A stretch of DNA of 23,960 nucleotides. Origin: a virus. The notes beneath the pieces are model-generated. The model did not search any database and had not been told where the DNA came from. It saw only the letters and a list, made by a program, of their open reading frames with translations. Position 1 is the first letter of the stretch; each line of letters begins with the position of its first letter. The position numbers and the translations under genes are program-made. Location of the stretch: IMG/VR virus record IMGVR_UViG_3300017735_001075, positions 1 to 23,960 of that record. One strand, 5' to 3'. Shown here in pieces: positions 494 through 15,215 of this stretch.

Positions 494-584
494 TGATCTT
501 GTTTTTTTTGTTTACACTTTTTTTTATTTTCTGTAAAAAAACCTCTAATTTTTTTATATTTTTTTCTTTTGGTTTATATATCAT
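477..584 (-). CDS. possible 35-residue lysine-rich peptide
   Basis: A small open frame whose ATG overlaps the stop codon of the connector gene in an ATGA arrangement and which ends 17 bases inside the peptidase gene. The product is very basic, with about 15 lysines in 35 residues. The coupling to the upstream gene is suggestive, but this stretch is an A-rich leader on the coding strand, and such sequence gives lysine codons by composition alone. No family recognised. It may only be the untranslated leader of the peptidase gene. Confidence 0.25.
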   Translation of the reverse strand: MIYKPKEKNIKKLEVFLQKIKKSVNKKNKINGKEK

Positions 585-1087
585 AGAACCCACCCATTAA
601 AAGTAGCATCATAACTAGGATAAATATCGTCGTTTGTATTGCTAGTATATTCCGGATAATTGGATTGATTAAAACTCATAAAGTCTATAAATCTTCTAGA
701 GTACCACTCCGCATTTGTTCTAGCTTTTTCCACCAAAAAGTCTATTTCGTTTTTATCAACAGAAACCGCATTTTCCGACGTGTGTTTAAATACTCCGCCC
801 TGCTTTACTTGGTACGCCGCAAATGGGTAGTAATTGGCCTGTGAGTACCATATTAGCATAGGCACAATATAGTCGTCTAGGATTGTCTTCCACCTTGCAT
901 TTGAAGGGTCGTCAATATTTGGTATTGCGGCCGATAAGCCATTGTATAGGTCCGTCCCCATTATTTGCTGAACGTCTATTTCCTGCGCTATCTTTACGAA
1001 CTGAATAAACTTGTCCGTAGAAATATTGCCGTCCATTATGGAGTTCCTTGCAAGGTCCGTTCTATTTATAAATAATTGTGTAGCCAT
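581..1087 (-). CDS. head-tail connector (adaptor) protein, DUF6712-like
   Basis: Probable head completion/connector protein that sits below the portal ring. The 168-residue protein is mostly helical. Its N-terminal pattern (residues 20-55: a segment beginning ISTDKF followed by AQEIDVQQIMGTDLYNGL) resembles the gp6/DUF6712 type of connector in Bacteroidota phages. The gene starts directly after the portal stop codon, the usual place for a connector. The C-terminus is rich in Asn, Tyr and Asp. The assignment rests on pattern recall plus position; catalytic motifs are neither seen nor expected. Confidence 0.65.
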   Translation of the reverse strand: MATQLFINRTDLARNSIMDGNISTDKFIQFVKIAQEIDVQQIMGTDLYNGLSAAIPNIDDPSNARWKTILDDYIVPMLIWYSQANYYPFAAYQVKQGGVFKHTSENAVSVDKNEIDFLVEKARTNAEWYSRRFIDFMSFNQSNYPEYTSNTNDDIYPSYDATFNGWVL

Positions 1088-3178
1088 TTATCTTCTTTTA
1101 TTTGTTGGTAAAAATCCCTCGTTTGGCATATCAACAGGAAGTTTGGAAACTAAAGGGTCGTTCTTTTCCGGCTTAAATCCTGCTTTTCTCGCTTGGTTTA
1201 CACTTATACTTGGAGCGTTTGGGCTTTTAATATCAATAGTTCCTTTCCCCTTTTTCATATACGTTTTACGCATCCAAAAATGATGGCAAGCGCCTCCGCC
1301 CTTGTAGAGCCAAACCGAATATGTTAAGGCTCCTCGCGGTCCCCAACCAACCTCCCGGCCGTCTTTATTAACGTAGGAAGAATTTACTTGAACGTTACCC
1401 ATTTTTAATATATCCTCTTTTCTGTAGATTTTTTTTGCGGCCACCATTTTTTTGCAAAAGCTTCTACTGTCGTCTGATTGTAGCGAGGCCTTTAGTGGTG
1501 CGTACTGATAGCGGACCTTAAATTGTGTACCGTCCACCGTTTCGTCTTGGCTGCTTTTTGCGTTTGGTCTTGCCGTTCCCGTAGATACAAATTCCCAAAG
1601 CTTTGAAAGTAAACTTTTTCCCTTTGTGTTTAATTGGCTTATTTGATAGTCTAGAGCCTCCTCGGTTTCATAGTCAACCTTTCGCTCGTCAATTAGCTCC
1701 CACTCGGATAGGTCCTCTTCCTCTCCAAAGGATTCTAAAGTAACCTCTTCTAGCTTAACGCAATTAGGTACTTTTTTACCGTTTTTGTCTTTCATTCCCC
1801 TTTGCTCGTAGCCGTCCCAACAGGGAGCCTTTAACTCCTCGTGGCTTACGCAGGGCATATAATAAGTAACTCCCTCAACCTCGTGTTCGTGTGAACCACC
1901 GCAGCCCATTTCTTCTGAAACCTTTTCAGCTTCCTCTTTTGTTTCATAGGCCTGCTTTCCGTCAATCATTTTAAGATTAAACTTTTGCATTTCCACTCCC
2001 GTTTCTTCTTCAATCGTTTCCTTATCTTGAATTGATTTGTCTACCTCAGTAAATTCTAGGGGCTGCAAGGTCGTAAAGTATAGATTTAAGCTTATATCAT
2101 TGTAAGCTAGTATTCTATCAAAGTTATCTATCAAAAGCTCTTGAAAAGGCCTTATAACGGTGTTATCCATTAGCAAGCTAGCGGTCTTTATTTCGTCCGC
2201 ATTATTTCCGAGTCCGGATTGGTCCTTTATTCCTAGAAGCATAGGGCTAACAATTCTGTGAGAAACCATTATTTTTTTGGTTGACTCCTCGCTTAAAAAT
2301 TGGTATTGGTTATGCGCGTCTGATAATTGAACCGGAGTAATTTCCGCTTGGCTTTCTTTGTTGTCATTAAATGCTAAAATGAATTTTCCTGCATTACTGC
2401 TACCGCTAAACTTTTGCGCTATCTTTTTCTCTATTAGCTGCCTTTCCTGTTGGTTCGGCGTGCCGTTATTAAAATTAATTAGCATACTAGGGCTTAGCCC
2501 GTTTAGTATATTATTCAAATGGTAATTTGAAACTTCCTCTTCTAGCTCCGCGTACTGCAGGCCTCCTTGATAGTCTACCGGAGAGTAATAATAAAACCCG
2601 GCCTTATACGGTTGTATGTATAAAATCTCAATGCTATCCTTTGACATTCCGAAAGCAGGGATTCTTAATGGCTCGTCATTCCTTTTTATATTGGCCCAAT
2701 CTTTGAAATAGTAATATGCGGGAACGTCCCCGTCCTCATTGCATTTTTCCGCCCTTAAAGTTTCAACCGGAATATGCTCAACCTGTGCTATAGTTTTTCT
2801 GTCCTTAGAATAAATAATCTGCACCGCACATTGGCCCATTAATTTTAGGTCATAGCAAAGTTTTCTAACGACGTCCTTTTTAAACAGAGAAACCATTTGA
2901 GCGTACTCGTTTGGCTTTTGGCTTGAGTTGGTAGCGTTTAGCCCCTTTCCATAAATGGCTTGGCTAATACCGTTTATTGCGGCGTTATTCGTAGGGCTTC
3001 CATTGTACCTATCAATTAAATACTGAAAGTAGTTATTATCCGCCCCGTACTCAATATATTCCTTTCCCGATACCTCCTTAATTTCCGGGCTTGTATAGGT
3101 GCTTAAATTTACAAAACCAAACTCCGAAGTTTTAGAGTTTTTAATAAATTGTCCCTTGTCGTTTCTTAATCGTTTCAT
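1088..3178 (-). CDS. portal protein with long C-terminal extension
   Basis: Portal proteins form the dodecameric ring through which DNA is packaged and to which the tail is attached. The first 390 or so residues of this 696-residue protein have portal character: an NNAAINGISQAIYGKGLN stretch near residue 65, and LLGIKDQSGLGNNADEI near 315-330, followed by helices that would form the stem and crown. The second half is unlike a plain portal. It has a GCGGSHEHE...YMPC segment near 426-445, a CWDGYEQRGMK...VPNCV segment near 453-473, a Glu/Asp-rich linker, then a Cys/His domain (SRSFCKKM near 574 and GGGACHHFW near 631) that recalls MuF-type minor head domains. The start overlaps the upstream gene by four bases (ATGA). 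Portal identity is good; the reading of the C-terminal half is inference. Confidence 0.8.
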   Translation of the reverse strand: MKRLRNDKGQFIKNSKTSEFGFVNLSTYTSPEIKEVSGKEYIEYGADNNYFQYLIDRYNGSPTNNAAINGISQAIYGKGLNATNSSQKPNEYAQMVSLFKKDVVRKLCYDLKLMGQCAVQIIYSKDRKTIAQVEHIPVETLRAEKCNEDGDVPAYYYFKDWANIKRNDEPLRIPAFGMSKDSIEILYIQPYKAGFYYYSPVDYQGGLQYAELEEEVSNYHLNNILNGLSPSMLINFNNGTPNQQERQLIEKKIAQKFSGSSNAGKFILAFNDNKESQAEITPVQLSDAHNQYQFLSEESTKKIMVSHRIVSPMLLGIKDQSGLGNNADEIKTASLLMDNTVIRPFQELLIDNFDRILAYNDISLNLYFTTLQPLEFTEVDKSIQDKETIEEETGVEMQKFNLKMIDGKQAYETKEEAEKVSEEMGCGGSHEHEVEGVTYYMPCVSHEELKAPCWDGYEQRGMKDKNGKKVPNCVKLEEVTLESFGEEEDLSEWELIDERKVDYETEEALDYQISQLNTKGKSLLSKLWEFVSTGTARPNAKSSQDETVDGTQFKVRYQYAPLKASLQSDDSRSFCKKMVAAKKIYRKEDILKMGNVQVNSSYVNKDGREVGWGPRGALTYSVWLYKGGGACHHFWMRKTYMKKGKGTIDIKSPNAPSISVNQARKAGFKPEKNDPLVSKLPVDMPNEGFLPTNKRR

Positions 3179-3531
3179 CTTACTTTATAAGTATTATCAT
3201 AACCATTATAGCTTAAATATTCATCTTCATTTAAGTCGTAATAGTCATTATTTAATTGGTCTATATTTTGGTCTGTACAGAAAATTCTATCTTTAAAAAT
3301 AACCTCGCCATTGCTAGTAAGTATTAAATCGTAAAAATGATTTTCTATTAATATAGGATTAAAGGTATTACTAAAATTTAAATAATTGCCGGAAATTACC
3401 GCATTTGTAATATTATAGGTTTCTTTTACGTTCGTACTATCGTCCCTTATTGATAAATCAAAGGTGGATAAGTAGCTTCTAGGGATAACCGAAAGTGATT
3501 GCGCGGTCGCTGATGTAGTTAGTATAATCAT
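3175..3531 (-). CDS. small virion-module protein of unknown function
   Basis: A 118-residue protein between the tail tube and portal genes. The sequence alternates polar and hydrophobic residues as in beta strands and has a distinctive KDRIFCTDQ segment near residues 80-88, which I recall from small proteins beside capsid genes in Flavobacteriia phages. The N-terminus (ILTTSATAQS) looks a little like a signal peptide, but the hydrophobic run is too short and lacks basic residues, so export is not supported. The leader contains CGTTATA, as do four other genes here. It is translationally coupled to the portal by an ATGA overlap. Probably a minor structural or assembly protein. Confidence 0.6.
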   Translation of the reverse strand: MIILTTSATAQSLSVIPRSYLSTFDLSIRDDSTNVKETYNITNAVISGNYLNFSNTFNPILIENHFYDLILTSNGEVIFKDRIFCTDQNIDQLNNDYYDLNEDEYLSYNGYDNTYKVR

Positions 3532-3578
3532 TGTTAGTATAACGATAAAAATACTTTAATTTGTAAAATGTATATAAC

Positions 3579-3607
3579 AAAAAAAAGCACCCTTAAAAAA
3601 GAGTGCC
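3579..3607 (-). terminator. Rho-independent terminator after the tail tube gene
   Basis: Read on the minus strand: a hairpin with stem GCACUC/GGGUGC (one G-U pair) and an AU-rich loop, followed by eight U. It lies about 30 bases beyond the stop codon of the tail tube gene and before the next gene's leader, as expected for an intrinsic terminator. Confidence 0.75.
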
Positions 3608-3638
3608 AATTTCAACTAAATAAAATAAACTTTTAGAC

Positions 3639-4169
3639 CTAACTCTGCGGGTCTATTTGTTCGGGTTGTGGGTTAAAAGAGCCCGTTAAGAAATAAGGTG
3701 CAACCTCTTCCATTCCCTCCATAGTAATAGTGAATCCCGAAAGGTCCCCTGCCGCTGCTCCCGTAACTACGGTTCCGCCGGTTAATTCCATTCCGTTCTC
3801 AAATCCACAAAGGAACATATTTCCGTAGTAATCCTCAACCACCACATAAGGTCTAGCTAAAGCGATAGTTTGTAACTCGGCCTGTGTTTTAGCGTCTAAA
3901 TAAGTAAGCGTTAAATTTAAAGTTTGTGTGTAAAAAGTGGTTCCATTTTCTCTACTACTTGTTACGGTAGTTTCTAAACTTGAATTTCCTTTTACGTCGA
4001 ATTGATACCATTTAGGTACAGGGCTATTTGGGTCAATAGTAGCCTCTTTTGTTATTGGGTCCACGATAATATCGTCAATAGAGCCATAGTTTGCAAAATA
4101 AGCTCTTTTAATTCCGCCAAAGGCAGCCTTACAAGGTATGATTCTCCCGGTTGTTAAAGTACAAGACAT
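3639..4169 (-). CDS. major tail tube protein
   Basis: Probable major tail protein forming the tube of a siphovirus tail. The 176-residue product starts MSCTLTTGR. It has the CKAAFGGIKRAYFANYG segment, then a beta-rich region with RENGTTFYTQTL (about residues 73-84), VVVEDYYGNMFLCGFENGM (about 107-125) and a Gly/Ala-rich stretch before the C-terminus, a pattern I know from Bacteroidota phage tail tube proteins. The frame is open to a TTG at 4199, but that start would lie inside the terminator hairpin, so ATG at 4169 with its A-rich leader is preferred. Flanked by terminators on both sides, which suits a gene expressed at its own level. It sits in the head module rather than beside the other tail genes. 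Confidence 0.75.
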   Translation of the reverse strand: MSCTLTTGRIIPCKAAFGGIKRAYFANYGSIDDIIVDPITKEATIDPNSPVPKWYQFDVKGNSSLETTVTSSRENGTTFYTQTLNLTLTYLDAKTQAELQTIALARPYVVVEDYYGNMFLCGFENGMELTGGTVVTGAAAGDLSGFTITMEGMEEVAPYFLTGSFNPQPEQIDPQS

Positions 4170-4184
4170 TTGTTTTATGTTTTT

Positions 4185-4221
4185 AAAAAAAAAGGGCAAG
4201 TAGATATATTTCTACCTACCC
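4185..4221 (-). terminator. strong intrinsic terminator or attenuator after the capsid gene
   Basis: Minus-strand RNA forms an 11-bp stem (GGGUAGGUAGA with UCUACUUGCCC, two G-U pairs), a six-base AAUAUA loop, then nine U. The next start codon lies only about 15 bases after the U tract, so no full promoter fits between. The hairpin therefore probably reduces, rather than ends, transcription into the tail tube gene, or protects the 3' end of the capsid mRNA. Confidence 0.85.
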
Positions 4222-4243
4222 TTATTTTATGGTTATTAATTAA

Positions 4244-5218
4244 TTATGCAAAAGAAACGATGTCCTCAGCAATTCCAAATTGAACTCCACTTGTAAAACG
4301 CATTACCATTCTTACATTGTTTGAAGCGTCCAAATCTGCCATATCCAAAACCTTAACTTCCTGTGTAGAATTTAGTAATCCTGTTCCGAAATAAAGGTTC
4401 CCTCTTTGAGCAGCATACATTTTGTCGTCAGACAATCCCGGAGAAACAAAAATCTTAACTCCGTTCACAGTTAGTGAGCCATTGTTCCACCATTGCGTCC
4501 CCATTCCGTTAACACCATTTGCTCCTAATCCATTTGCTCCAAATCCGCCCAATGCTTGAACGTAAAGTTTTGCGGCCTTAGAAGAAATGTATAAAAATAA
4601 ATCTTCTTTTCCGTAAACTTGGCTAGGAATAGCCGCTACAACGTCAGATAATTTCTCAATGATGTTACCCGCCGTTAAAGGTGCTGAAACTAAAGCTTGA
4701 GCCGCAGGAATGTCCCCTGCAGTTACCGCAGCAGCGATCAACTTTTCAAATCCGTCAAAAGAGGTATATCCTGCTCCTGCAGTATCTCCTTGCCAAATGT
4801 TAAACTCAGTATTTTGTGCAACTTCTGCTGCAACGTGAGCTATTAAAAAATCAGAAAATTTAGGAGGTAAAGATTGACCTAAACCGTAGCCCATTTGTTG
4901 GCTTTCCCAATCGTTAACAAAGTCGTACTTACATAACTGTAAGTTTACTTGTAATTCTTTTGGCTCAATAATTCTTTCAGTTAAAGTTACTGAACTGTTA
5001 GGCACAAAGTCGCACCCGGCAGCAGTTACTAAATCTCCTGTTGCTAATTTTTTAATTACTTCTTTGTAAGAAATATTAGATTTTACAGAAATACCTCCGT
5101 CGTCAATAGTAGACGCTTTCAAAAGTGCAGCCGCGATATACTCTCCTGCAAATTCTCCTGCATAAGTAGTAGTGATGTTAGTTGTAGTTGCTAAATCAAC
5201 TTTTTTTAAGTTACTCAT
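4244..5218 (-). CDS. major capsid protein
   Basis: Probable HK97-fold major capsid protein, 324 residues, a normal length. The order protease, scaffold, capsid supports this. Features seen: an N-terminal region with TTAGEFAGEYIAAAL-like spacing, a central FDGFEKLI segment typical of the A-domain region of Bacteroidota phage capsid proteins, the VYGKEDLFLYIS strand-helix pattern, and a C-terminal VRMVMRFTSGVQFG strand region. A Gly/Asn-rich insertion (GGFGANGLGANGVNGMG, about residues 224-240) looks like an exposed loop. ATG start at 5218, 11 bases after the scaffold gene. A terminator hairpin directly follows the stop codon. Confidence 0.8.
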   Translation of the reverse strand: MSNLKKVDLATTTNITTTYAGEFAGEYIAAALLKASTIDDGGISVKSNISYKEVIKKLATGDLVTAAGCDFVPNSSVTLTERIIEPKELQVNLQLCKYDFVNDWESQQMGYGLGQSLPPKFSDFLIAHVAAEVAQNTEFNIWQGDTAGAGYTSFDGFEKLIAAAVTAGDIPAAQALVSAPLTAGNIIEKLSDVVAAIPSQVYGKEDLFLYISSKAAKLYVQALGGFGANGLGANGVNGMGTQWWNNGSLTVNGVKIFVSPGLSDDKMYAAQRGNLYFGTGLLNSTQEVKVLDMADLDASNNVRMVMRFTSGVQFGIAEDIVSFA

Positions 5219-5229
5219 TTTTTTTTATT

Positions 5230-5880
5230 TTAATTTTTAATTTTACTTATTTGCTCCATAACCTTGTCAAAGGTTGTATTAAATTTTCCTTTTCCAAATT
5301 CAACCCTGTTTACCTTTTTTGATTCTCCCTCCGGGTTGTGCTTTATTGGTTTAGCTGCGGCCTCTGATAATTCGGCTTTTACCTTTTCAGTTATTTTTTC
5401 TGAAAATTCTTCTTTTACTGTTCTAGACTTTAAAGGCGCTTGCGCTTCCGTAGATAAATCTTCTTTAGGTTCTAGCATTGCTTTGATTTCCTCAATCATA
5501 TTTTTAACCTCTGCCAATTCCTCTTTGGTCGCGTAACCTAGCTCCTCTTTTTCTTCTTTTTCTTCTTCCTCTAGGTCCTCAGTAGTTTCCTCTTTTTCTT
5601 CTTCTTTTGTTTCCTCTTCCTTTGCCGGAGCCTCGTCTGATACCTCTCTAATATCTGCAATGGTTCCCTCTTCTTCAACTACTACTAGTCTGCCATCTTC
5701 AAGTAAATACTCTCCGACAGGCATTGCTACCTTTTCGTCGTCTGTTACTATAAAGACTTCCTTTCCTTTTTCAAATGACTCTGCGGTTATTACAGTCCCA
5801 TTTTCTAGCTTGGTTTCTTCAAGTTTTACTTCAATATTTAGAAGCGTTTTAATTTGGTTTAACATTTCGGTTGATTTCAT
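5230..5880 (-). CDS. capsid scaffold-like protein
   Basis: Likely scaffolding protein that guides capsid assembly and leaves or is digested during maturation. The 216-residue protein has a small folded N-terminal part (residues 1-80), then a very acidic Glu/Lys stretch (about 85-115), a helical coiled-coil segment (about 118-140) and a basic, helical C-terminus, the usual build of scaffolds, which bind capsid protein through a basic C-terminal helix. It lies immediately upstream of the capsid gene and downstream of the protease gene. ATG start at 5880; the leader contains CGTTATA. The call rests on composition and position, not on a family signature. Confidence 0.7.
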   Translation of the reverse strand: MKSTEMLNQIKTLLNIEVKLEETKLENGTVITAESFEKGKEVFIVTDDEKVAMPVGEYLLEDGRLVVVEEEGTIADIREVSDEAPAKEEETKEEEKEETTEDLEEEEKEEKEELGYATKEELAEVKNMIEEIKAMLEPKEDLSTEAQAPLKSRTVKEEFSEKITEKVKAELSEAAAKPIKHNPEGESKKVNRVEFGKGKFNTTFDKVMEQISKIKN

Positions 5881-5931
5881 AATTACTTATATAACGATTA
5901 TTAATTTAATTTTTGCATTTTGGTTATTATT

Positions 5932-6765
5932 TTAAGGCGTACAATTTGTAAAATTGGGCTTAGGTAAATTCCAAGCGGTCGCATTATCACTAAAGCCGGA
6001 GCAGGCAGTAACGTTTCCAACGCTCCAACTACCTAAGTCTTGATTGTAGGCCGCTGCGTCCTTAAACATTTGCACCATATCGGTAACATTGCCCACGTCC
6101 CAATTACTTAGGGGCTGATTAAATGCATTTGCTCCGCTAAACATAGAACCCATTGATGTCGCGGTAGAGGTATTCCAATCCTTTATTATTCCATTAAATG
6201 ACTGCGCACCGTTAAAGGCTTGAATCATAAGTTCAACATTGCCCACGTCCCAAGAATTTAAATCTTGATTAAAATTAAAGGCATTTTGAAACATTCTTGA
6301 CATAGCGTACAAGTTACTAACATTCCACCCGCCTATATTTTGGTTGAAACTCCAAGCCCCGCTAAACATATTTCCCATAACAGTAACATTGCCCACGTCC
6401 CAAGCAGAAATATCTCCGTTAAAGTTGGTCTTGTTAAAAAAAGCGTTGCTCATATTCGTTACTTGGCTTACGTCCCAATCTTGTATTTTTCCATAAGGAA
6501 TCAAGTCATAGTCCCCGTTGGGGTCTTGCGCCAATATATCTGTGATAGCCTGCTGAAAAGTTGCGTCTGTTAATGGCGGGTTTACAGGCGGAGTCGGTGC
6601 TATGCCTGTAATACTACCTATTCCCTGTGATTGAATAGAACCATCGCAGCAACTTATTGAGTATGTATTGGTGTCCCAACAAAGGCAGGCCCGAGAGCCA
6701 CCCTTGGGGCTTGTTCTACTCCCTATGTAAATTCCGTTACTTTTCCTCACTTGACAGTATTTCAA
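5932..6765 (-). CDS. DUF285 (BspA-like) repeat protein in the head module
   Basis: The 277-residue protein has a Cys-rich N-terminal module (CLCWDTNTYSISCCDG, about residues 27-42) and a Pro-rich linker (about 57-66). Seven repeats of about 24 residues follow, of the form WDVGNVTxM...FxGAxxFNQ (about 93-265), which match the DUF285/BspA-type surface repeat. The N-terminal module is one I recall from structural proteins of Flavobacteriia phages, so it probably anchors the protein to the particle while the repeats project and bind something outside. Starts at TTG 6765, overlapping the protease gene by 29 bases; GTG at codon 6 is an alternative. No lipobox or signal peptide, unlike cellular BspA proteins. 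Confidence 0.7.
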   Translation of the reverse strand: MKYCQVRKSNGIYIGSRTSPKGGSRACLCWDTNTYSISCCDGSIQSQGIGSITGIAPTPPVNPPLTDATFQQAITDILAQDPNGDYDLIPYGKIQDWDVSQVTNMSNAFFNKTNFNGDISAWDVGNVTVMGNMFSGAWSFNQNIGGWNVSNLYAMSRMFQNAFNFNQDLNSWDVGNVELMIQAFNGAQSFNGIIKDWNTSTATSMGSMFSGANAFNQPLSNWDVGNVTDMVQMFKDAAAYNQDLGSWSVGNVTACSGFSDNATAWNLPKPNFTNCTP

Positions 6766-7345
6766 TTATTTTTAGTAACGTCGCTTTATCATTTTGGGCT
6801 GACATATCCTCCTTAATTTCTTCTTTAGGTGCTTCCATTTTGTCTGCAAAGTAACCCTCAATAGAAAAACCCTTAACTTTATTTGTTCTAACGTATTCAT
6901 TCCAAATTTCCTCATTATTTACTTTAACCGAGCCCATCCAAGTTCCCACCGGGACGTTCAGTCCGTATTTCCTAGACTTATCCTGCACCTCATCTTCAAC
7001 AATCCAAGATTCAACCAATGTAAGGCCTTTTAATTCCTTTGAGTGTTCTAGCGTTGAGTTATTTTGGTAGCCATTTCTTAAGTACATTTGCGAGGCCTTA
7101 GAAATAGTTTCTTTAGAGAAAAAAATATAATAATCTCCCTCTTCGTTTTTTCTGTAAATTGGCTTGTTAGGTATTAATAAAGCACCTAGCAAAATCCTTT
7201 TTTCTTTGTCAACTTCTGCTAGCTTAATTTCTTCCCCTTTTAAGGCAACAAAGTCTGATTCTATGGCCGGGCTTTCAACTATTGAAATGGCCTCGATTCC
7301 GCTTTCTTCTTGTTCCTCGTCTAATATTAGTTCTACTATTCTCAT
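6737..7345 (-). CDS. prohead protease, XkdF-like
   Basis: Probable serine protease that matures the prohead by cutting scaffold and capsid subunits. The 202-residue protein matches the XkdF-like family layout: VESPAIESDF near residues 23-32, a core with STLEHS (His101 as likely catalytic histidine), VESWIVED near 111-118, PVGTWMGSV near 132-140, and KGFSIEGYF with the likely nucleophile Ser161. It lies upstream of the scaffold and capsid genes, as proteases of this class do, with the DUF285-repeat gene inserted between. ATG start at 7345; the leader has CGTTATAATAGT directly before the ATG. Confidence 0.8.
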   Translation of the reverse strand: MRIVELILDEEQEESGIEAISIVESPAIESDFVALKGEEIKLAEVDKEKRILLGALLIPNKPIYRKNEEGDYYIFFSKETISKASQMYLRNGYQNNSTLEHSKELKGLTLVESWIVEDEVQDKSRKYGLNVPVGTWMGSVKVNNEEIWNEYVRTNKVKGFSIEGYFADKMEAPKEEIKEDMSAQNDKATLLKIIEILSSEEK

Positions 7346-7379
7346 ACTATTATAACGTTTATTTTATTAATTTTTGTAT

Positions 7380-9539
7380 TTATCCAATCGTTGCACCTTG
7401 CACAATATTTCTATCTAGCTCCTGCGCGGTTGATATATCATTTGAAACCACATAGGCTTGAACGGGTTGTTGAGATTGGCCGCCTATTGCGTCCGCTAAT
7501 TGGTTGGTAGATGAAGCACCTACTGTATTAAACTCCGGCGGTATTGATTGTACCTCGGGAGCTGATGGTGGCGCACTTGCGCTAACTGTTGGTGGCGCAT
7601 CGATGCTAGGACTAGGTGCTGAAACTCCAATCTTTGAGGTGGCCTGCTTAGATGTTTTCATTGCGCCTCTTATAGCTGATACAATACCTATAGCCTGCGC
7701 AGCATAACCCAAAATTAATGGTACGTTAAGAGGAAATGGGGCAGCACTCGCTGCTTTTGCAGCACCCGTTGAAACGTCCACCCCTGCCTCAGACGCTTTT
7801 ACAACCGACTTGGTTGCAGACTGTTTAGCAGTAAATAAAGTCCCTTTTAGCTCCATTATCATTTCCTTAGCCTGTAGTAATTGTTTAGCTATTAAAATAG
7901 CCTTTCCTAGCTTAGAATCTGCGCCTGCTATCGTAACCGCGTCTGCAAATGCTTTTTCCTTTGCCGCCGTTTTTTCTTGCTCTAATCTTATCTCTTCCTT
8001 AACCCTATCTTCATCTTCCTTGAGCTGCTTATCTTTTCTATCCTTTTCCTTTTGGGCAAGGCCGTCTTTTCTTTCTTGGTCTGTTAAGTCAAATGCGTCT
8101 TGCTTTTCCTTAAGCATTACATCTCTAGCTTCTTTTAGCGCGTCTGTATTTATGTTATTTTCTTCGGCCTGTAATATTAAAGCGTCGTAATGCTCCTGTA
8201 TTTTTAATAGCTCCAAGGCTCTTTTCTCTTCCTCTGTAACGGCCTCTGCGTCTCTTAATGATTTTTTAAAGTCCGCTAGTGCCTGCTCAGCAGCCTTTTC
8301 CTCGGCCTTCAATCCAATTATCTGCGACGTAACCTCTTTGGCCTTTGATAATTTTGCCGTTTCTAAATTCATAAGATTTGCTCGTAGGCTTGCCTCTTCC
8401 TGTAGGTCCTCTTTTGTTGACTTTCCTAAAGCGTTTTCACTAATTTTTGCGTCTAGTCTTAGCTTGGCTGCTGCTATTTCTTTAGCCGTTATTTCGTCCT
8501 CCTTTTGTCCCGCTAGGGTTAAAAAGTTTATTCTTTCTTGAAGAGAAAATTTTTCTTTATCAACGGCCTTGTTTAGTAAGTCTGCCCTTTCCTTATTTGC
8601 GATAGCTCGGTCAACAATTAGCTGCCTGTCTAATTTGTCGGCTGCCGCTCTTTGGTCTGCAATTTTTGAAGCTGCCTTTCCCTCTTCTAGTATTTCCTTT
8701 GTAAGCTCCTTTGTGCTATCAATTAAAGCATTTGTAATTATAACCGCAGGGTTTAAGGCTTTATTTAGTCCAACAATACCTTTCCCGGCGTCCTCCAATG
8801 CTCCGGAAAAGTCCCCACTAAAAAGTTTGCTAATTGCCGAGCCCATAAATCCTAAGCTTTCAACCGCAGCGTCTATTTTATCCATTACGAACTCCTTAAC
8901 GCTCTTCCCAAAGTTTTTAAGTGTTTCTACCGGGCTTGTGAATAGGTTTATTAAACCCTCCCCCAATGAAGCCAAACGGTCTGTAAATACGGAAACGGTC
9001 GCGCCAAGAATACCCATTATTTTATTCCACTTGTTCTGCCCCTCCTCGGACGACGTAAATGCGGCCTGTAATGATGTCAATGCAATTATTAACGCTCCAA
9101 TTCCTGTACCAATAATGGCGACTTTCATAAGGTTAAAACCTTTTGTTGCCCCGCCTATGGATTTAGTCATTCCGGAAAACCCCGAAATAAGGCCGCCCGT
9201 CTTAGAGTCTATTACTCCCAAAACTCCGCTATAGTCTGCGGCATTTTCTTCTGCTTCCTTTAGTGATTCATTTGCTTTTTTGCGTTCCTTAGTAACGTCC
9301 TTTAACCCCTTTTTTTCGTCCTTTAAGGCGTCCTTTGTTTTTTGTATTTTTTTATTTAGACTTTCCCTAGCAGCCAAGTTGGTTTTTGATGTATTCCTTA
9401 GGGCCTTTTCATAGTCAAATAAATCATTTTCAAGCTCATCAATTAGCTCCGTTTGTGCCTCAAAGGAACTGTTTAATTCTTCTACGTTTTTTTGAGCCGT
9501 TGCAGTATCTACCTTTAAGCTATATTCTTTTACTACCAT
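7380..9539 (-). CDS. tail tape measure protein
   Basis: Sets tail length and fills the tail tube before DNA release. The 719-residue protein has long heptad-like helical segments (residues 12-100 and about 290-530, very rich in Glu, Lys and Ala), a hydrophobic Gly-rich segment near 140-165 (MKVAIIGTGIGALIIALTSL) typical of tape measures, a second small hydrophobic segment near 605-630, and a Pro/Ser/Ala-rich C-terminus. At about 1.5 angstrom per residue it predicts a tail near 110 nm, by the usual rule for siphoviruses. ATG start at 9539, overlapping a 50-residue ORF by 20 bases. Unlike the usual order, the chaperone gene is not its direct neighbour. Confidence 0.9.
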   Translation of the reverse strand: MVVKEYSLKVDTATAQKNVEELNSSFEAQTELIDELENDLFDYEKALRNTSKTNLAARESLNKKIQKTKDALKDEKKGLKDVTKERKKANESLKEAEENAADYSGVLGVIDSKTGGLISGFSGMTKSIGGATKGFNLMKVAIIGTGIGALIIALTSLQAAFTSSEEGQNKWNKIMGILGATVSVFTDRLASLGEGLINLFTSPVETLKNFGKSVKEFVMDKIDAAVESLGFMGSAISKLFSGDFSGALEDAGKGIVGLNKALNPAVIITNALIDSTKELTKEILEEGKAASKIADQRAAADKLDRQLIVDRAIANKERADLLNKAVDKEKFSLQERINFLTLAGQKEDEITAKEIAAAKLRLDAKISENALGKSTKEDLQEEASLRANLMNLETAKLSKAKEVTSQIIGLKAEEKAAEQALADFKKSLRDAEAVTEEEKRALELLKIQEHYDALILQAEENNINTDALKEARDVMLKEKQDAFDLTDQERKDGLAQKEKDRKDKQLKEDEDRVKEEIRLEQEKTAAKEKAFADAVTIAGADSKLGKAILIAKQLLQAKEMIMELKGTLFTAKQSATKSVVKASEAGVDVSTGAAKAASAAPFPLNVPLILGYAAQAIGIVSAIRGAMKTSKQATSKIGVSAPSPSIDAPPTVSASAPPSAPEVQSIPPEFNTVGASSTNQLADAIGGQSQQPVQAYVVSNDISTAQELDRNIVQGATIG

Positions 9540-9672
9540 TTGTAACCGTTTTTTTTATTAATTTTATGGCCCCTTTTAAATCTTTAGGTAAAGCATTTTT
9601 TCCCTGTGCAATTCTTATATTTTCAGTTTCTCCATTTACTACTTGAAGCAAGTCTATTATATTTTTTATCAT
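9520..9672 (-). CDS. small tail-module protein, 50 residues, unknown
   Basis: Fills the gap between the large distal tail gene and the tape measure and overlaps the tape measure start by 20 bases, which suggests translational coupling. The product begins MIKNIIDLLQVVNGE and ends in a basic helix; it looks like a small helical protein. No family recognised. Support is positional: without it there would be a 143-base gap in an otherwise tightly packed operon. Confidence 0.55.
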   Translation of the reverse strand: MIKNIIDLLQVVNGETENIRIAQGKNALPKDLKGAIKLIKKTVTNGSKRI

Positions 9673-9682
9673 AATTATTTTT

Positions 9683-12148
9683 TTATAATGGTACGTCTAT
9701 AAAATTAACTGAGGAGTTCTGACCTTGTAAAATTGAATAAACTCCTATCCTGTAGGTTTGTTGCCCCTGCAAATTACTAAACGTATAAGTTGTGGTGGTA
9801 CTGCTAACCGTCGCGTATTGACTTTGATTTAAGTCTATTCCAATATTGTCAATTTGTCCTAAAGGTAAATCCCAAGCAACTGAAATTGAATCCTGCGTGG
9901 TTCCTGTTACCCTTAAATTGCTAGGAGGTTGTAAGCCGGGACCGGGAGGGTTTCCACCTTGGCCGCCTTTATAAACCCTATTCAATAATTCCAACTTACT
10001 CTTACCACTTTGTAAATTTGTAGTAATTGAATTTATAATATAGTCCTTTTGATTTATTGAAAATATATCATTTAGCTTGAAATTATATAAAATTCTCAAG
10101 GGCAAATAAGCATCTACCTTTGTTATTCTTCTGCTCTCATTAAATACCGCAATTATGTACTCGCTATGAAAATTATTAAATAGAGTTTCGTCGAAACCGC
10201 TACCGCCTGTCCACTCGTTTAATTCAAGGTTGAAATTGATGTTTTCTGTTCCATTTCCTGTATTTAAATACAAACTATTTGAGGGCACGTAATAAGAGTC
10301 TAAACGAAATTTTAAACTATCGCTTTCCATAAAGCTGATTCTAGTATTTGTGCCAATATCAACAGGTATAAATTCTGCGTAAAATATAAGAGGCAAACCA
10401 ATATAAGCCTGTTGACTTTCGTTCACAGAGTAGCCCCATTGCACCGTAGTAAGATTGCTATTTGCTGCATCTATTAAACGCTCAAATTTCATATGCTCAA
10501 AAGGTACTGAAACCTTATAAACTTTTGTTGAAGCATTATAATTTTGGCCTCCTGTTCCGTCCGAACTTGTACCGCCAATATACTTCAATGTCCCCCAACC
10601 GGAGCCGGATAACTGCTCGTGCTGCTTTGCAAGGTACGTGCCTAGACCGTCGTACTTGTAAATAATTTCTTTATATGGCAGGGCCGCGTTTACTTGACCC
10701 TTTGTGGAATCAACAAATTGTGATATATCATACTTAACCGGCGCGTCATTTCCGTCGATATCCGCTGAGGTATAATAGCTATAATCCGCCGTCCCGAATT
10801 TTGCGTCTAGAGGCCTTACAATGATTGTACCCGCATCATTTACATAGGCGACCAAATTAAAGGCCTTAAATAGCCCTGTTAGAAACGACATAACCGTAAC
10901 GTCCGGTATCTGCTCCGAAACCACAAACGTAAACTGTTTTTGAACTGTAAACCCTTGATTTAAAAATAGTGTATCAGTATAAGGTACATTACCTGTCCCA
11001 CTTGTTTGTGTAAATCCATAAACTCTTACTTCTATATTTGTAAAAGTAATAATCTCTGAATGCTGAACGCTTATAACATACTGACCGTCCCCAACTAAGG
11101 CAGGGTTTTGATTAAATGTAAAAGAGCCCGTTACGGTAAAAGGCGAGGTATAAATAACCGTACCATTTAATGAAATTACAAGCCTGTAGGGGTCTGTTGT
11201 ATTTGCGGTTGTAAACTCGACTTCCCATTGTGTTATTCCATTTGGCTGATTTACGTAAAAGCTAGGAATATAAAAGCCCTGCCCGGACGGAACAACTGCA
11301 ACAGGATTAACTATACTCCAACCCGTAATTGGCGAGGTATAGCTTGTTACCTGTGTAGCCGGCTCAACGCTTCCGCTCTTTCTGTGCAGCCACATATAAA
11401 GATTGTAAAACTCCGGATTGTTTACATTAAAAAAATCCCTAGAAAATTGTATAGGAAATTCATAACCATTTGCTGCGCTATACCTTTCCTCTATCTGCTC
11501 AATAATGGCATAAAGTCTTATTGCATATTTTAGCTCATTCCAATATACACCGTGCATATTTGTACCTCCGCCGGTATGATAAAAAAGATTACCGTCGCCG
11601 TTTTGGTGGGTAACGCTATCGTAAAAAAGTCTTTGCGAGTGTGTAATTAAAGGAACTATTATATTTTCATTGACTCCTGTTCCCGTTGAGGTTTTATTCT
11701 TAGATAAAAATTCTTTAATTTCATCGGGGCTATAAGTAAGCTCGTAGTCCGTTCCGGAAAATGGAAGCGCGCCCAACTTGTCCTCTCCTATAACGTCGGG
11801 TAGCTCGACCGTATTTCCGAAAAATGTAATTCTATAAATATAGGCCACATTATTCTTTAAGTCAACCCCTTCTAGCTTTACTCTTCCGGTTTTAAAAGGC
11901 ACAGAATTAAGCAATATTTCGGCGGGCTTTTTTAGTCTTGCGTCAAATCCGTCTACAATATCAAAGTTGTAAAAATGCTTAAAAATTTTATTATTAACCT
12001 TGCTAGCGGGTAGCGAAAATGTTTTAGTGAATGATGTAAAAATTTTACTAATATCTTTTACGTTTTGGATTGTCTGCGTAATAGAAACAGTTTCATCTTT
12101 GAATAAATCAATCCTGTTACCCTCAATATATAATTCTAGCTTCTGCAT
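9683..12148 (-). CDS. large distal tail / baseplate hub-like protein with C-terminal Fn3 domain
   Basis: An 821-residue virion protein. The N-terminal 130 residues carry a strongly patterned segment (LFKDETVSITQTIQNVKDISKIF, then TKTFSLPASKVNN and FKHFYNFDI) that I recall from large tail proteins in Bacteroidota phages, where the gene sits next to the tape measure. The middle is beta-rich with many Asn, Thr and Gly residues, as in adsorption proteins. The last 80 residues (PPSNLRVTG...SISVAWD...YRIGVYS) form a fibronectin type III domain. Probable role: baseplate hub and host contact at the tail tip. ATG at 12148 follows three copies of a 10-base repeat. Precise function is inferred. Confidence 0.65.
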   Translation of the reverse strand: MQKLELYIEGNRIDLFKDETVSITQTIQNVKDISKIFTSFTKTFSLPASKVNNKIFKHFYNFDIVDGFDARLKKPAEILLNSVPFKTGRVKLEGVDLKNNVAYIYRITFFGNTVELPDVIGEDKLGALPFSGTDYELTYSPDEIKEFLSKNKTSTGTGVNENIIVPLITHSQRLFYDSVTHQNGDGNLFYHTGGGTNMHGVYWNELKYAIRLYAIIEQIEERYSAANGYEFPIQFSRDFFNVNNPEFYNLYMWLHRKSGSVEPATQVTSYTSPITGWSIVNPVAVVPSGQGFYIPSFYVNQPNGITQWEVEFTTANTTDPYRLVISLNGTVIYTSPFTVTGSFTFNQNPALVGDGQYVISVQHSEIITFTNIEVRVYGFTQTSGTGNVPYTDTLFLNQGFTVQKQFTFVVSEQIPDVTVMSFLTGLFKAFNLVAYVNDAGTIIVRPLDAKFGTADYSYYTSADIDGNDAPVKYDISQFVDSTKGQVNAALPYKEIIYKYDGLGTYLAKQHEQLSGSGWGTLKYIGGTSSDGTGGQNYNASTKVYKVSVPFEHMKFERLIDAANSNLTTVQWGYSVNESQQAYIGLPLIFYAEFIPVDIGTNTRISFMESDSLKFRLDSYYVPSNSLYLNTGNGTENINFNLELNEWTGGSGFDETLFNNFHSEYIIAVFNESRRITKVDAYLPLRILYNFKLNDIFSINQKDYIINSITTNLQSGKSKLELLNRVYKGGQGGNPPGPGLQPPSNLRVTGTTQDSISVAWDLPLGQIDNIGIDLNQSQYATVSSTTTTYTFSNLQGQQTYRIGVYSILQGQNSSVNFIDVPL

Positions 12149-12150
12149 CT

Positions 12151-12180
12151 ATGTTATATTATGTTATCTTATGTTATTTA
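12151..12180 (-). repeat. three tandem 10-base repeats at a gene junction
   Basis: The plus strand reads ATGTTATATT, ATGTTATCTT, ATGTTATTTA: three copies with a 10-base period, seven bases invariant. The array spans the 3' end of the upstream distal tail gene and the short leader of the next gene. On the coding strand each unit contains AACATA. Confidence 0.7.
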
Positions 12181-13186
12181 TATAATCAAAGGCGTCCTCA
12201 AACTCTATTGTATAATCTATTAGTCTGTCATTTAAGCTTGTTTTTAGCCTCATAGACGAGGTTTTAACCCTTACCGGTATCGTTATCCCCGAGGCAGGAT
12301 TTTGTCGCCTGTAAACCTTCATCCATACGTATTCTGATAATAGTAGCTGCTCAAAATACTCGACCGCCCATTCGGGATAATAACCCGAGCTTAGCGTATA
12401 AGTTTTTTTAGCTTGTGTATTAAATGTTTTTACGGGCGCATCTGTTAGCTGATAATAAGGGTCTATATCGTCCTGCGTTATAATTGTGTTAGACTTATAA
12501 GATTCATTTTTTCTGCCAAGTTTTTGAACCTCTTTTAATGAAAACCAAAGTTCCTGCTGCGCACCGTATTTATTTATGAAAATAATTTTCCTACCATTTC
12601 CGTACTTACTGCAATTAATTCTAGTTACTTTTAATTCTTCGTCTATATCAAAAGCTTGATAACTTGTAGTAGTAGGAGAAATGTAATGAGTTACCGGTAA
12701 ACCAAATGCGTCCATTCCGGCTACGTAACCCCCAACATCATTCGGCAGAAATATCTCAAATTTATTATTTGAATAAGACGTTGAATCCGCAGCTAATAAC
12801 CAAGTTCCGTTAGAAATTGATCTATAAACAGGATTGACAGGATTAGCCCCGTCTTGATAAGTTCCATAAGCCTCAAAGCCTGCGTCAAAATAATTTGTGT
12901 TACCACCAAATTGGTTACCTGTTCCGTTATAATCGTCAAAGCTTGTTAATACACTAATTATGTTAATTAATTGTGGAAAGTTACCCGGAGAATAAGTAAT
13001 AGATAGATAGTCCCTCACTAATTCTGAAATATCAAAGGTTGTATAGCTTTGGCCGTCTGTCTTATTTTTTGCTATTGTATATCTTAGCGTATTATTTATA
13101 AGAAGATAAAGAACGGTTGATTTAACGCTCGCATTACTTACATTCTTGCTTTTAAGTTGCGGGTTTCTTAAACAAATATTTGCCAT
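12164..13186 (-). CDS. tail structural protein, probable distal tail component
   Basis: The 340-residue protein is beta-rich. It begins MANICLRNPQL and contains a conserved-looking segment with TRINCSKYGNGRKIIFINKYG near residues 190-210, followed by QQELWFSLKE. I recall this pattern from virion proteins next to the large baseplate protein in Bacteroidota phages. The order here (neck proteins, this gene, large distal gene, tape measure) supports a tail role. No enzymatic motif. ATG start at 13186 in an A-rich leader. Function beyond structural is not known to me. Confidence 0.55.
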   Translation of the reverse strand: MANICLRNPQLKSKNVSNASVKSTVLYLLINNTLRYTIAKNKTDGQSYTTFDISELVRDYLSITYSPGNFPQLINIISVLTSFDDYNGTGNQFGGNTNYFDAGFEAYGTYQDGANPVNPVYRSISNGTWLLAADSTSYSNNKFEIFLPNDVGGYVAGMDAFGLPVTHYISPTTTSYQAFDIDEELKVTRINCSKYGNGRKIIFINKYGAQQELWFSLKEVQKLGRKNESYKSNTIITQDDIDPYYQLTDAPVKTFNTQAKKTYTLSSGYYPEWAVEYFEQLLLSEYVWMKVYRRQNPASGITIPVRVKTSSMRLKTSLNDRLIDYTIEFEDAFDYINNIR

Positions 13187-13192
13187 TTTTTT

Positions 13193-13756
13193 TTATTTTT
13201 TTATTCCTAGTATTATTGTATTTTCAACATCTAAAGCGTAGGCGTTTATTATATCGTCCCCCAATCTTTTTAGTCCTCTTTCAAAAGGCTTAGAAAAAAA
13301 TTCATTTCCTTTTAGCCCCTGCGCGTAGATACTTTTCTGTAGCCAAAATCCCATTGACCTATAAGAGCCTGCCTTAAATTGTCCTCCGCCTTTTTTTCCT
13401 TTTTTTACTCTAAATCTTATATTTTTACTTTTAGCCCAACTAATAAGCATATCCAAAGGCGGCCTTTTAGATTTATATTTAAACCTGCTTAACGGTGCTT
13501 TTTGAACGCCCACTCTTCCGGTTATACTGCTATCAACTAGTCTAGGATTTGCCCCTTTTACTCCCTCGTCCACAAATGGGCCGTAGTCATTCATAAAAAA
13601 CTCAACAAATATAGCCCCGTTTTCAATTATAATTTCTGCGGACAAAGACTCATACAGGGAACCTTTTTTTCCGTCCTTTGTTAAATTCGTCCGGGCCTGT
13701 TGGATAACATACTTGTGGAACTTATTTAGCTCCTCTTCTAAATACTTATATTCCAT
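13193..13756 (-). CDS. HK97 gp10-like neck or tail completion protein
   Basis: A 187-residue protein with the pattern EFFMNDYGPFVDEGVKG (about residues 52-68), characteristic of gp10-like neck/tail completion proteins, followed by a basic region with KGKKGGGQFKAG and a helical C-terminus. Expected to take part in joining head and tail. The gene starts one base before the stop codon of the upstream tail-terminator-like gene, so the two are translationally coupled. A basic C-terminal half is unusual for a purely structural ring protein and may contact DNA. Confidence 0.65.
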   Translation of the reverse strand: MEYKYLEEELNKFHKYVIQQARTNLTKDGKKGSLYESLSAEIIIENGAIFVEFFMNDYGPFVDEGVKGANPRLVDSSITGRVGVQKAPLSRFKYKSKRPPLDMLISWAKSKNIRFRVKKGKKGGGQFKAGSYRSMGFWLQKSIYAQGLKGNEFFSKPFERGLKRLGDDIINAYALDVENTIILGIKK

Positions 13757-14227
13757 TTAGCAAATATAAATATCGTTATAAATTTGTATATCCATTGTGG
13801 CCGTCCACCCCGCGAGTTGGTTTTCAAATCGGTCATAAAAAGGGTTTAAACTAGGGCTTCCGGATAATTGGTACATATCCGTATGAAGCTGCCCCATTCT
13901 AAGTCTTTGTATAAGCCTATTTAAGACTGCTAGCTGAGTGTTTAAAATATTCTGAACGTCATTATTACCGACGAATATGTCCTCTGTTGGAAGCTTTGAT
14001 TCGTTCACTATATCGCAGGCTAATATACTTATATTGAAGTCTAGAGTTTGCTCGTTCACAACCACGCTATTAATTATAATATGGCCTAGAGGGAATATAT
14101 CCTGCTTGCTAAGATTTACGTCCGTTATATCGCCTGTGGTAACCGTATTTACATTTACGTCTTGCAGCAGTTCTTCTTTTATGGTTTCAGTTAATTGGTA
14201 AAACCCTCTTACTCCTTGATTGCTCAT
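13757..14227 (-). CDS. tail terminator-like protein
   Basis: A 156-residue protein placed between the tail chaperone and the gp10-like gene. The N-terminal helix (LTETIKEELLQDVNVNTVTTGD) and the ILACDIVNES strand, followed by a region ending WTATMDIQIYND, fit the small alpha/beta proteins that cap siphovirus tail tubes. The ATG overlaps the stop of the chaperone extension frame (ATGA). The C-terminal codons happen to contain CAAATATA on the plus strand, but this is coding sequence, not a promoter. Assignment by position and fold impression. Confidence 0.5.
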   Translation of the reverse strand: MSNQGVRGFYQLTETIKEELLQDVNVNTVTTGDITDVNLSKQDIFPLGHIIINSVVVNEQTLDFNISILACDIVNESKLPTEDIFVGNNDVQNILNTQLAVLNRLIQRLRMGQLHTDMYQLSGSPSLNPFYDRFENQLAGWTATMDIQIYNDIYIC

Positions 14228-14478
14228 TTAAAATTCTTTTTTATTTGTTTCGCTTCGACCTCGTTTTTATCCTTCATAAATGATAGCATAGTAAAGCATT
14301 TATGCATTTTTAATTTAGTGATATTTTCAAATCGTGTAACGTCTCCTTGAGCGAGTCCATAAATTGACTGATACCAACCCCACTTTGCTGAGAATTGAGA
14401 TACCGCGTCAAGACTTCGCTCCCCTCCTCCTCCAAAGAGTTCGTCATAACTTGCGACAATTCTAGTCCTAAATTCCAC
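14224..14478 (-). CDS. tail assembly chaperone, -1 frameshift extension (T-like part)
   Basis: A frame of 84 codons that overlaps the 3' part of the 216-residue chaperone gene in the -1 frame and ends at the ATGA overlap with the next gene. Its only possible start here is a GTG at 14478, directly after ten T, so separate initiation is unlikely. The sequence has a folded-protein look (SAKWGWYQSIYGLAQGD near the middle), a motif I recall from chaperone C-termini in Bacteroidota phages. A -1 slip on the T run joins it to codon 160 of the upstream frame and gives a product of about 245 residues, analogous to lambda gpGT. Confidence 0.7.
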   Translation of the reverse strand: MEFRTRIVASYDELFGGGGERSLDAVSQFSAKWGWYQSIYGLAQGDVTRFENITKLKMHKCFTMLSFMKDKNEVEAKQIKKNFK

Positions 14479-14960: not shown

Positions 14961-15007
14961 ACTATTATAACGGATTTTATTTTGTTTTTTATTTGAATAA
15001 AGATAAT

Positions 15008-15035
15008 AAAAAAAAGGCAGCCATTTCTGACCGCC
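15008..15035 (-). terminator. Rho-independent terminator
   Basis: Minus-strand RNA: 8-bp stem GGCGGUCA/UGGCUGCC (two G-U pairs) closed by a GAAA tetraloop and followed by eight U. It ends the short transcription unit of tiny ORFs between the terminase and the tail operon. Confidence 0.85.
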
Positions 15036-15085
15036 CCTTAATGACTATTACTACCCCCCGGAGTAACGCCATATAATTTTAAATT

Positions 15086-15211: not shown

Positions 15212-15215
15212 AATC

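What the first reader, a model, noticed from the sequence alone, without database searches (positions are those of the whole stretch)
1088..3178. Portal protein with long Cys/His-rich C-terminal extension
The portal is about 300 residues longer than usual. The extension has the HEHE/YMPC and CWDGYEQRGMK/VPNCV segments and a final Cys/His domain that recalls MuF-type minor head proteins. A portal with a covalently linked MuF-like domain would place a second head protein or toxin-like domain at the vertex.
Basis: partly seen in the sequence, partly recalled or inferred. Interest (0 to 1): 0.5.

Follow-up and report, generated by a model that had tools for sequence, protein, structure and literature searches.

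The report
Phage portal carrying a tethered MuF-like domain
The DNA-gate protein of a marine bacterial virus carries, as a built-in tail piece, what looks like a half-sized relative of a separate inner-head protein (MuF); related viruses carry the same piece on their head protease instead, which suggests it must be inside the assembling head whatever carries it.

Summary
These are two small, dispensable Cys motifs also found in other marine phages (DUF3721, aa 411-446; CW.GY...VPNC, aa 456-477), a low-confidence linker, and a conserved Cys/His domain (aa ~553-645). Pfam does not name that domain, and direct comparison with MuF fails. An intermediate family of stand-alone proteins joins it to MuF by profile comparison; one member, in Pelagibacter phage HTVC111P, lies between portal and scaffold, the usual MuF place. 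In 101 distinct pairs of complete portal and XkdF-type protease the domain sits on exactly one of the two (87 portal, 14 protease, 0 both, 0 neither), though this may reflect only one or two ancestral relocations. Portal-MuF and protease-MuF fusions are in print for Microbacterium phages. Most likely it is a covalently tethered internal head protein that helps start infection, as SPP1 gp7 does; location and function are inferred, not shown.

The parts
1088..3178 (-). whole portal gene, 696 aa, including the fused extension
1967..3106 (-). portal core, aa 25-404 (portal fold)
   Evidence: PHROG 33693 2.3e-116; solved portals, best Z 16.4
1841..1948 (-). Cys/His module 1, aa 411-446, Pfam DUF3721 (GCGGSHEHEVEG..YYMPC); predicted helix plus beta hairpin
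   Evidence: PF12518 2.1e-8, 34.2 bits against a cut-off of 27; secondary structure
1748..1813 (-). Cys module 2, aa 456-477, CWDGYEQRGMKDKNGKKVPNCV; predicted beta hairpin
   Evidence: absent from close relative L017 and from phage P12024S
1556..1675 (-). low-confidence linker, aa 502-541
   Evidence: pLDDT below 50
1244..1522 (-). MuF-like Cys/His domain, aa ~553-645 (R.FC..M...YRKEDI...N...G...Y.....KGG..C.H.W)
   Evidence: link to stand-alone MuF-like proteins
1091..1243 (-). C-terminal tail, aa 646-696; no Pfam family
6737..7345 (-). XkdF-type head protease (Peptidase_S78_2), 202 aa, WITHOUT the MuF-like domain; its relatives carry the domain where the portal lacks it
4244..5218 (-). major capsid protein by position and by relatives (PHROG 11320 has no named function; a relative also matches a major head protein family weakly, 0.00076); seed of the sample not chosen by the domain
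581..1087 (-). DUF6712 protein directly downstream of the portal

Best explanation
The extension is a MuF-type internal head protein reduced to its C-terminal Cys/His half and fused to the portal, with two optional Cys modules in the linker. In stand-alone MuF systems such as SPP1 gp7, the portal recruits a few copies of a separate protein into the procapsid (paper passage). Here fusion does the recruiting: each portal subunit (12 in a ring, established knowledge of portals) brings its own copy, and the C-terminal side of the portal, which faces the head interior in known portals (established knowledge), places the domain among the packaged DNA. In a related lineage the same domain sits in the XkdF-type head protease, the other protein expected inside the procapsid. 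The likely job is gp7-like: contact DNA at the portal vertex and help start infection. SHOWN here: the portal fold, the extension, the domain family, its stand-alone relatives, one stand-alone gene between portal and scaffold, and one carrier per virus in the sample. INFERRED: MuF descent (through intermediates), interior location, copy number, DNA contact, metal binding, role in infection.
For: (a) Portal core then extension. (b) A profile of the domain (A4, 29 rows) finds stand-alone proteins of 249-572 aa in Bacteroidota genomes: 10 of 395 genomes have a match at E <= 0.001 per genome; one is the portal fusion of the seed genome, two are partial matches left aside, seven were kept. (c) Profile-profile, A4 against eight stand-alones (A5): probability 98.8, E 1.2e-16; without L297 and L285: 98.4, score 88.5 against at most 18.9 in 100 column shuffles. 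(d) A5 against 10 MuF sequences: 88.5, E 2.8e-6, score 39.7 against at most 17.1 in 60 shuffles and 10.8 reversed; without L297 and L285: 90.8, score 41.8 against at most 25.0 in 100 shuffles. (e) L285, found by A4, matches Pfam Phage_Mu_F over positions 2-108 of 112 at 0.0016, under the cut-off, and PHROG 595 'head maturation protease' at 2.8e-6 and two 'minor head protein' families at 0.0053 and 0.016. (f) In reverse, the A5 model finds the window portal at 6.9e-8 among the window's ORFs and, among 11,138 viral ORFs at E <= 0.01, 260 portals, 30 proteases and 8 contig-edge fragments, nothing else. (g) Pelagibacter phage HTVC111P gp33, annotated hypothetical, matches A5 (2.7e-13 in a small set) and lies between portal and scaffold. 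(h) Exactly one carrier per virus in 101 distinct pairs. (i) Independent structure search of predicted viral proteins: of seven hits with E <= 0.001, four are named, a 745-aa portal and three XkdF proteins.
Against: Direct comparison of the domain with MuF gives no signal: A4 probability 0.3, score 12.5, below the best shuffle (17.0 of 60); A2 probability 0.1. No Pfam MuF match is found for the window portal or for any of the 42 members of A1. The A4 hits are weak (4.8e-7 to 7.7e-4 per genome; at 0.001 about 0.4 false hits are expected in 395 genomes), and A4 did not reach 0.001 in G037, the genome of L297, although L297 scores 2.9e-5 in a small set. The helical half of the MuF domain is not detectable in the portal; the A5 match covers model positions 82-131 of 139, and that half of A5 alone barely matches MuF (6.6). 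No solved structure matches the domain model (best Foldseek E 1.9). HTVC111P gp33 has no MuF match in Pfam or PHROGs. The one-carrier pattern needs only one change on the portal tree. Pairwise hhalign E-values are rough. Nothing here shows location, copy number or role in the particle.
Confidence: 0.64

Rival explanations
1. The domain is an assembly device: it helps the portal or protease join the scaffold and capsid protein during procapsid nucleation and has no role in infection.
For: Its two carriers, portal and head protease, are both expected early procapsid components, and the capsid and scaffold-like genes lie between their genes in the window. The domain is kept although the linker modules come and go.
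Against: Per the paper passage seen, SPP1 gp7, the studied relative by analogy, is not needed for assembly but for efficient infection.
Confidence: 0.2
2. The domain is an unrelated Cys/His knuckle that resembles MuF by convergence.
For: No direct profile match to MuF; no structural match; the weakest link of the chain, A5 to MuF, is 88-91%.
Against: The A4-A5 link is very strong, and the A5-MuF link spans 104-110 columns with the R...C/H and C.C/H landmarks in register, well above shuffled controls; an A5-type gene occupies the MuF place in HTVC111P.
Confidence: 0.14
3. The extension is cut from the portal by the phage's own XkdF-type protease during maturation and becomes a free internal protein.
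For: A low-confidence linker precedes the domain and a head protease is encoded. The domain is separable: it occurs alone, on the portal or on the protease.
Against: No cleavage site was sought; nothing here tests processing.
Confidence: 0.15
4. The extension delivers a toxin or effector.
For: Some stand-alone relatives carry a CdiA_C toxin domain after the MuF-like domain (L280 at 3.1e-7, over the cut-off; L282 at 0.0013, under it); by reading, two others (in L325 and L326) hold an HEFGH stretch typical of zinc proteases (motif recalled).
Against: In the window only about 51 residues follow the domain and no Pfam family matches them.
Confidence: 0.03

Closest known systems
MuF-type minor head proteins (Mu gpF, SPP1 gp7; Pfam PF04233, superfamily MuF1-4 of PMC5576092)
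   Same: Remote similarity of the C-terminal Cys/His half through intermediates; link to the portal; stand-alone relative between portal and scaffold.
   Different: Fused to the portal instead of a separate gene; helical half not detectable; no direct match; fusion would force one copy per portal subunit, against the 1-2 copies per capsid told for gp7 (PMC5576092 passages).
Portal-MuF fusions (Microbacterium phage subclusters EA3, EA5, EA8 and cluster EB) and MuF-protease fusion (cluster EG), PMC7302621 (passages seen)
   Same: The same two partners for fusion: portal in some phages, head protease in others.
   Different: Actinobacterial phages; whether those MuF domains are related to this one was not tested.
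Nonlabens phage P12024S/L portal (YP_006560346)
   Same: Same portal with the same C-terminal domain; protease without it in P12024S.
   Different: 560 aa, lacks both Cys modules; annotated only as portal.
XkdF-like proteases of uncultured phages (A0A6J5N616, A0A6J5NSI2, A0A6J5PSY8)
   Same: Structure search matches the domain model (E 2.6e-6, 3.2e-4, 5.3e-4).
   Different: Carrier is the protease, not the portal.
Pfam DUF3721 (PF12518)
   Same: Module 1 is a member by score over cut-off.
   Different: No difference found; function unknown; no paper in the held library names it.
MuF polymorphic toxins (PMC5576092, passages)
   Same: Some stand-alone relatives of the domain carry a C-terminal CdiA_C domain.
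   Different: No toxin domain found in the window.

Membership tests
Phage portal protein | portal fold | tested here: met
   aa 25-404, best Z 16.4; PHROG 2.3e-116; Pfam hit under cut-off
MuF superfamily | match to PF04233 or PF06152 above cut-off | tested here: not met
   no MuF family at E up to 10 for the extension; none for the 42 members of A1, window included, at E up to 1
MuF superfamily | HMM-HMM similarity to PF04233-type sequences (criterion of PMC5576092, passage) | tested here: inconclusive
   direct: no signal; through the stand-alone intermediates: probability 98.8, then 88.5, above shuffles
MuF superfamily | gene immediately downstream of the portal gene (PMC5576092, passage) | tested here: inconclusive
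   here it is the C-terminal end of the portal itself; in HTVC111P the stand-alone gene follows the portal after one gene on the other strand; in L278 it is a separate ORF right after the portal, split off by one in-frame stop
MuF superfamily | N-terminal helical half of the MuF domain | tested here: not met
   A5 model matches the portal only at positions 82-131 of 139
MuF superfamily | located in the procapsid, bound to the portal | not testable with these tools
   fusion to the portal implies contact; location is inferred
MuF polymorphic toxin | toxin domain after the MuF domain | tested here: not met
   no Pfam family matches aa 504-696
DUF3721 | score above Pfam cut-off | tested here: met
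   34.2 bits against 27
beta-beta-alpha-metal nuclease (EndoG-like) | fold | tested here: inconclusive
   weak EndoG/EXOG rows, Z 2.5-3.0 over 67-75 residues; no Foldseek E below 1.9

The most novel reading that the evidence does not exclude
One MuF-derived domain is an obligatory item of the procapsid interior in a large group of marine phages, and its carrier is free to change: fused to the portal (one copy per subunit), inserted before the catalytic core of the head protease, placed after that core, or stand-alone, but never on both portal and protease of one virus. Selection would then act on the domain being inside the head, not on the protein it is attached to, and small Cys modules of one kind or another gather on whichever protein is the carrier.
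Probability: 0.43. Interest if true: 0.6.

Novelty: new variant of a known kind. Interest (0 to 1): 0.45.

Why it matters
MuF-type proteins are widespread yet poorly understood, and they are the vehicle of many phage-borne toxins (PMC5576092, passages). A lineage in which a minimal MuF half is welded to the portal or to the head protease would show which part is kept, gives a predictable copy number, and offers isolates (P12024S/L) in which a simple truncation could test what the domain does. It also lets many 'long portals' and 'long XkdF proteases' in marine data be annotated. Fusion of MuF to portal or protease as such is already in print.

Tried and rejected
Direct Pfam, PHROG and PDB sequence searches of the extension named only the portal family itself and DUF3721; scattered weak hits in single relatives, such as a 'hyaluronidase' family in 2 of 42 members at 0.0098, were not believed. 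NCBIfam and PADLOC were not searched. The PDB fold search of the domain model gave no match with E under 1.9; weak EndoG/EXOG rows were not believed. tblastn of two stand-alone relatives in phages: L297 found nothing; L282 found HTVC111P at 0.009, HTVC202P at 0.09, one Klebsiella phage tail fibre at 0.1 and the P12024 portals only at 0.9. The sample of the phylum of G002 with A4 found only the seed genome, 1 of 299.

Counts and what was left out. Of the nine non-seed matches, L284 and L287 were partial and left aside. Of 13 Phage_Mu_F matches, ten made the MuF set (one, L298, under the cut-off); L294 and L300 (very long frames) and L297 (used in A5) were left out. In one search a protease frame of any length counted, which made L476 look like 'neither'; its DNA shows a protease cut by the contig start and broken by a frame shift, and therefore asked for 120 aa or more. 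Portals L062, L063 and L072 lack the domain because the contig ends there. In one search the count of 'GG..C.H' by a simple pattern was spoiled by earlier GG pairs and is not used. The portal tree was the quick method with 43 rows; protease carriers need one change (support 79), so the 101 pairs are not independent. Two places in the protease (before the core; after it in L205 and L210) suggest more than one relocation, but this was not tested. Paper searches for MuF with portal or protease; for P12024S with portal; for DUF3721; for Cys motifs on head proteases. In their listings and the passages seen none described this portal extension; most subscription papers are not held.

Full report
OBSERVATION. 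The gene is window 1088-3178 on the minus strand, 696 aa. Residues 23-423 match PHROG 33693 'portal protein' at 2.3e-116; Pfam Phage_portal matches at 5.8e-8, under its cut-off. A full-length AlphaFold model from 49 sequences (pLDDT 66.8, pTM 0.45) aligns over about aa 25-404 with solved portals: best Z 16.4 (325 residues, rmsd 9.7); of the 50 rows listed, 49 are titled portal, neck or connector and one is a whole gene-transfer-agent particle (Foldseek best E 1.3e-6). So the portal ends near residue 404 and about 290 residues are extra. Portals of the lineage without the domain have a median of 389 aa, those with it 625.5.

ANATOMY. After the core come: module 1, aa 411-446, Pfam DUF3721 (2.1e-8), predicted helix and hairpin; module 2, aa 456-477, CW.GY..G.K...VPNC, predicted hairpin; a linker with pLDDT under 50 at aa 502-541; the Cys/His domain, aa ~553-645; and a tail to 696. 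Thirteen domain residues, C575, C631 and H633 among them, do not vary in 49 sequences. Close relative L017 lacks both modules cleanly, and P12024S lacks them too, yet both keep the domain. The modules occur elsewhere: the 82-aa linker query matched 108 of 50,697 phage records at E <= 0.01, 90 of them named Synechococcus, cyanophage or Prochlorococcus, and most of the 60 rows listed are 'hypothetical'; in P-SSM2 the match lies in a gene between gp15 and the small terminase gene. They are a loose, dispensable module type and not part of the MuF resemblance.

DISTRIBUTION. Isolates with the domain in the phage collection are Nonlabens phages P12024S and P12024L. Further searches showed that in some relatives the domain is not on the portal but in the XkdF-type head protease.

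ONE CARRIER PER VIRUS. Of 115 loci with a complete portal and a complete protease (120 aa or more), 101 pairs are distinct: 87 have the domain on the portal only, 14 on the protease only, none on both, none on neither. In the sample seeded with the major capsid protein, not chosen by the domain, 42 of 42 complete portals carry it and 0 of 61 complete proteases do; in the sample seeded with a domainless portal, 0 of 78 complete portals carry it, and 17 of 18 protease frames do, the last being a fragment of a broken, cut-off gene. These samples are close kin of their seeds (80% identity or more for the capsid protein, 69% or more for the portal), and viruses with neither would be missed by the other seeds. 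On a quick tree of 43 portal cores the protease state needs one change; the domain lies before the catalytic core in the proteases except in L205 and L210, where it follows it. So the rule is clean, but the number of independent events may be only one or two. Isolate P12024S fits (portal with, protease without). A structure search of the domain model against predicted viral proteins gave seven hits with E <= 0.001; the four with names are one 745-aa portal (3.0e-8) and three XkdF proteins (2.6e-6, 3.2e-4, 5.3e-4), which agrees independently. Cys modules gather on the carrier, but mostly of different kinds: DUF3721-like in 102 of 246 and CW.GY in 74 of 246 domain portals, 0 of 57 domainless portals; two other motifs in 13 of 17 and 8 of 17 domain proteases and 1 of 111 domainless ones each; DUF3721-like in 1 of 17 and 1 of 111, CW.GY in 2 of 17 and 2 of 111 (simple patterns, kinship not corrected). 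L191 has modules on a protease without the domain.

IS IT MuF? Directly, no: no Pfam match, and the profile comparison stays below its shuffled controls (score 12.5 against at most 17.0). But the domain profile finds stand-alone proteins in Bacteroidota genomes (10 of 395 genomes with a match, one being the portal fusion of the seed genome; E 4.8e-7 to 9.7e-4 for the rest), such as L279 with TRAFCRACLNKIYTRQQIDEMDN...YRGGWRCRHIWMPV. The weaker of these would not convince alone, since about 0.4 chance hits are expected. Their profile (A5: seven of them plus L297) and the domain profile (A4) agree at probability 98.8, E 1.2e-16. A5 and ten MuF sequences taken from Pfam Phage_Mu_F matches agree at 88.5, E 2.8e-6, over 110 columns. 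Leaving out L297 (first found by Phage_Mu_F, and not reached by A4 at 0.001 in its genome) and L285 (a weak Phage_Mu_F match), the two figures become 98.4 and 90.8, with scores 88.5 and 41.8 against best shuffles of 18.9 and 25.0 in 100. The Cys/His half of A5 alone gives 53.8 against MuF, the helical half alone 6.6. In the alignment the FC of the domain family faces the SH of MuF, and its C.H faces the CRC of MuF. In the reverse direction the A5 model, built from bacterial genomes alone, finds the window portal at 6.9e-8 and, of 11,138 viral ORFs, only portals (260), proteases (30) and 8 contig-edge fragments. No other MuF was found in the window. L280 and L282 have a CdiA_C domain behind the MuF-like domain (L282 under the cut-off), the layout of MuF toxins. 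In Pelagibacter phage HTVC111P the stand-alone gene (gp33, hypothetical) lies after the portal and before scaffold and capsid genes; it has no MuF match in Pfam or PHROGs itself. In a metagenome-assembled genome (L278, in G002) the domain ORF follows the portal, split from it by one in-frame stop, which may be real or an assembly error.

READING. The window's portal carries what is most likely the C-terminal half of a MuF-superfamily domain as a fused tail. From paper passages: SPP1 gp7 is brought into the procapsid by the portal in a few copies, is dispensable for assembly, and without it about 25% of virions are infectious (PMC6316719); gp7 is present in 1-2 copies per capsid and MuF genes lie right after portal genes (PMC5576092). 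Fusion would replace recruitment and fix the copy number at one per portal subunit. That the domain is inside the head, binds DNA or metal, and helps infection is inference. Because a direct match and the helical half fail, I do not file it as a MuF protein; I say that it probably derives from the MuF superfamily and works like a tethered MuF.

WHAT IS KNOWN. Fusions of MuF to the portal (Microbacterium EA3, EA5, EA8, EB) and to the capsid maturation protease (EG) are in print (PMC7302621, passages), and effector domains fused to MuF or portal are described (PMC5512222, passages). So the principle is known; this domain version, its wide marine distribution, and the swap of carrier between portal and XkdF protease were not found in the searches listed under Tried and rejected. 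Novelty: new variant of a known kind.

Noticed in passing
window 5932-6765 (-): A DUF285 repeat protein (PF03382, 2.3e-61) lies between the head protease and the scaffold-like gene, overlapping the protease end; its place in the head operon is unexplained, possibly a decoration or adhesion protein.
   Followed up: partly
window 16977-19372 (-): Four adjacent genes upstream of the terminase genes: formyltransferase, GNAT acetyltransferase, ABC-type ATPase and ParB-N proteins (PF00551, PF13508, PF00005, PF02195). Looks like a unit of unknown purpose.
   Followed up: partly
window 1088-16650 (-): Gene order is unusual: the portal comes after tail, protease and capsid genes, some 12 kb away from the large terminase gene.
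   Followed up: no
L188 6986-8734, L197 4902-6401, L199 6687-8810 (stop-to-stop frames): Head proteases with stacked modules (RCI..GY..DQA.AIC; in L197 and L199 YNDYP...C.T.VG..RA; in L199 C..G...VPNC) in front of the catalytic core.
   Followed up: partly
L325 (frame of 602 aa, minus strand) and L326 3938-5767: Proteins of ~600 aa with a MuF-like domain match (1.1e-6 and 3.0e-5 per genome) followed by an HEFGH stretch, possibly MuF with a zinc-protease effector (motif recalled).
   Followed up: no
L030 2705-4681 and 4563-4826: A relative whose linker holds a different insert in place of the Cys modules and whose domain is continued in another frame at its end.
   Followed up: no
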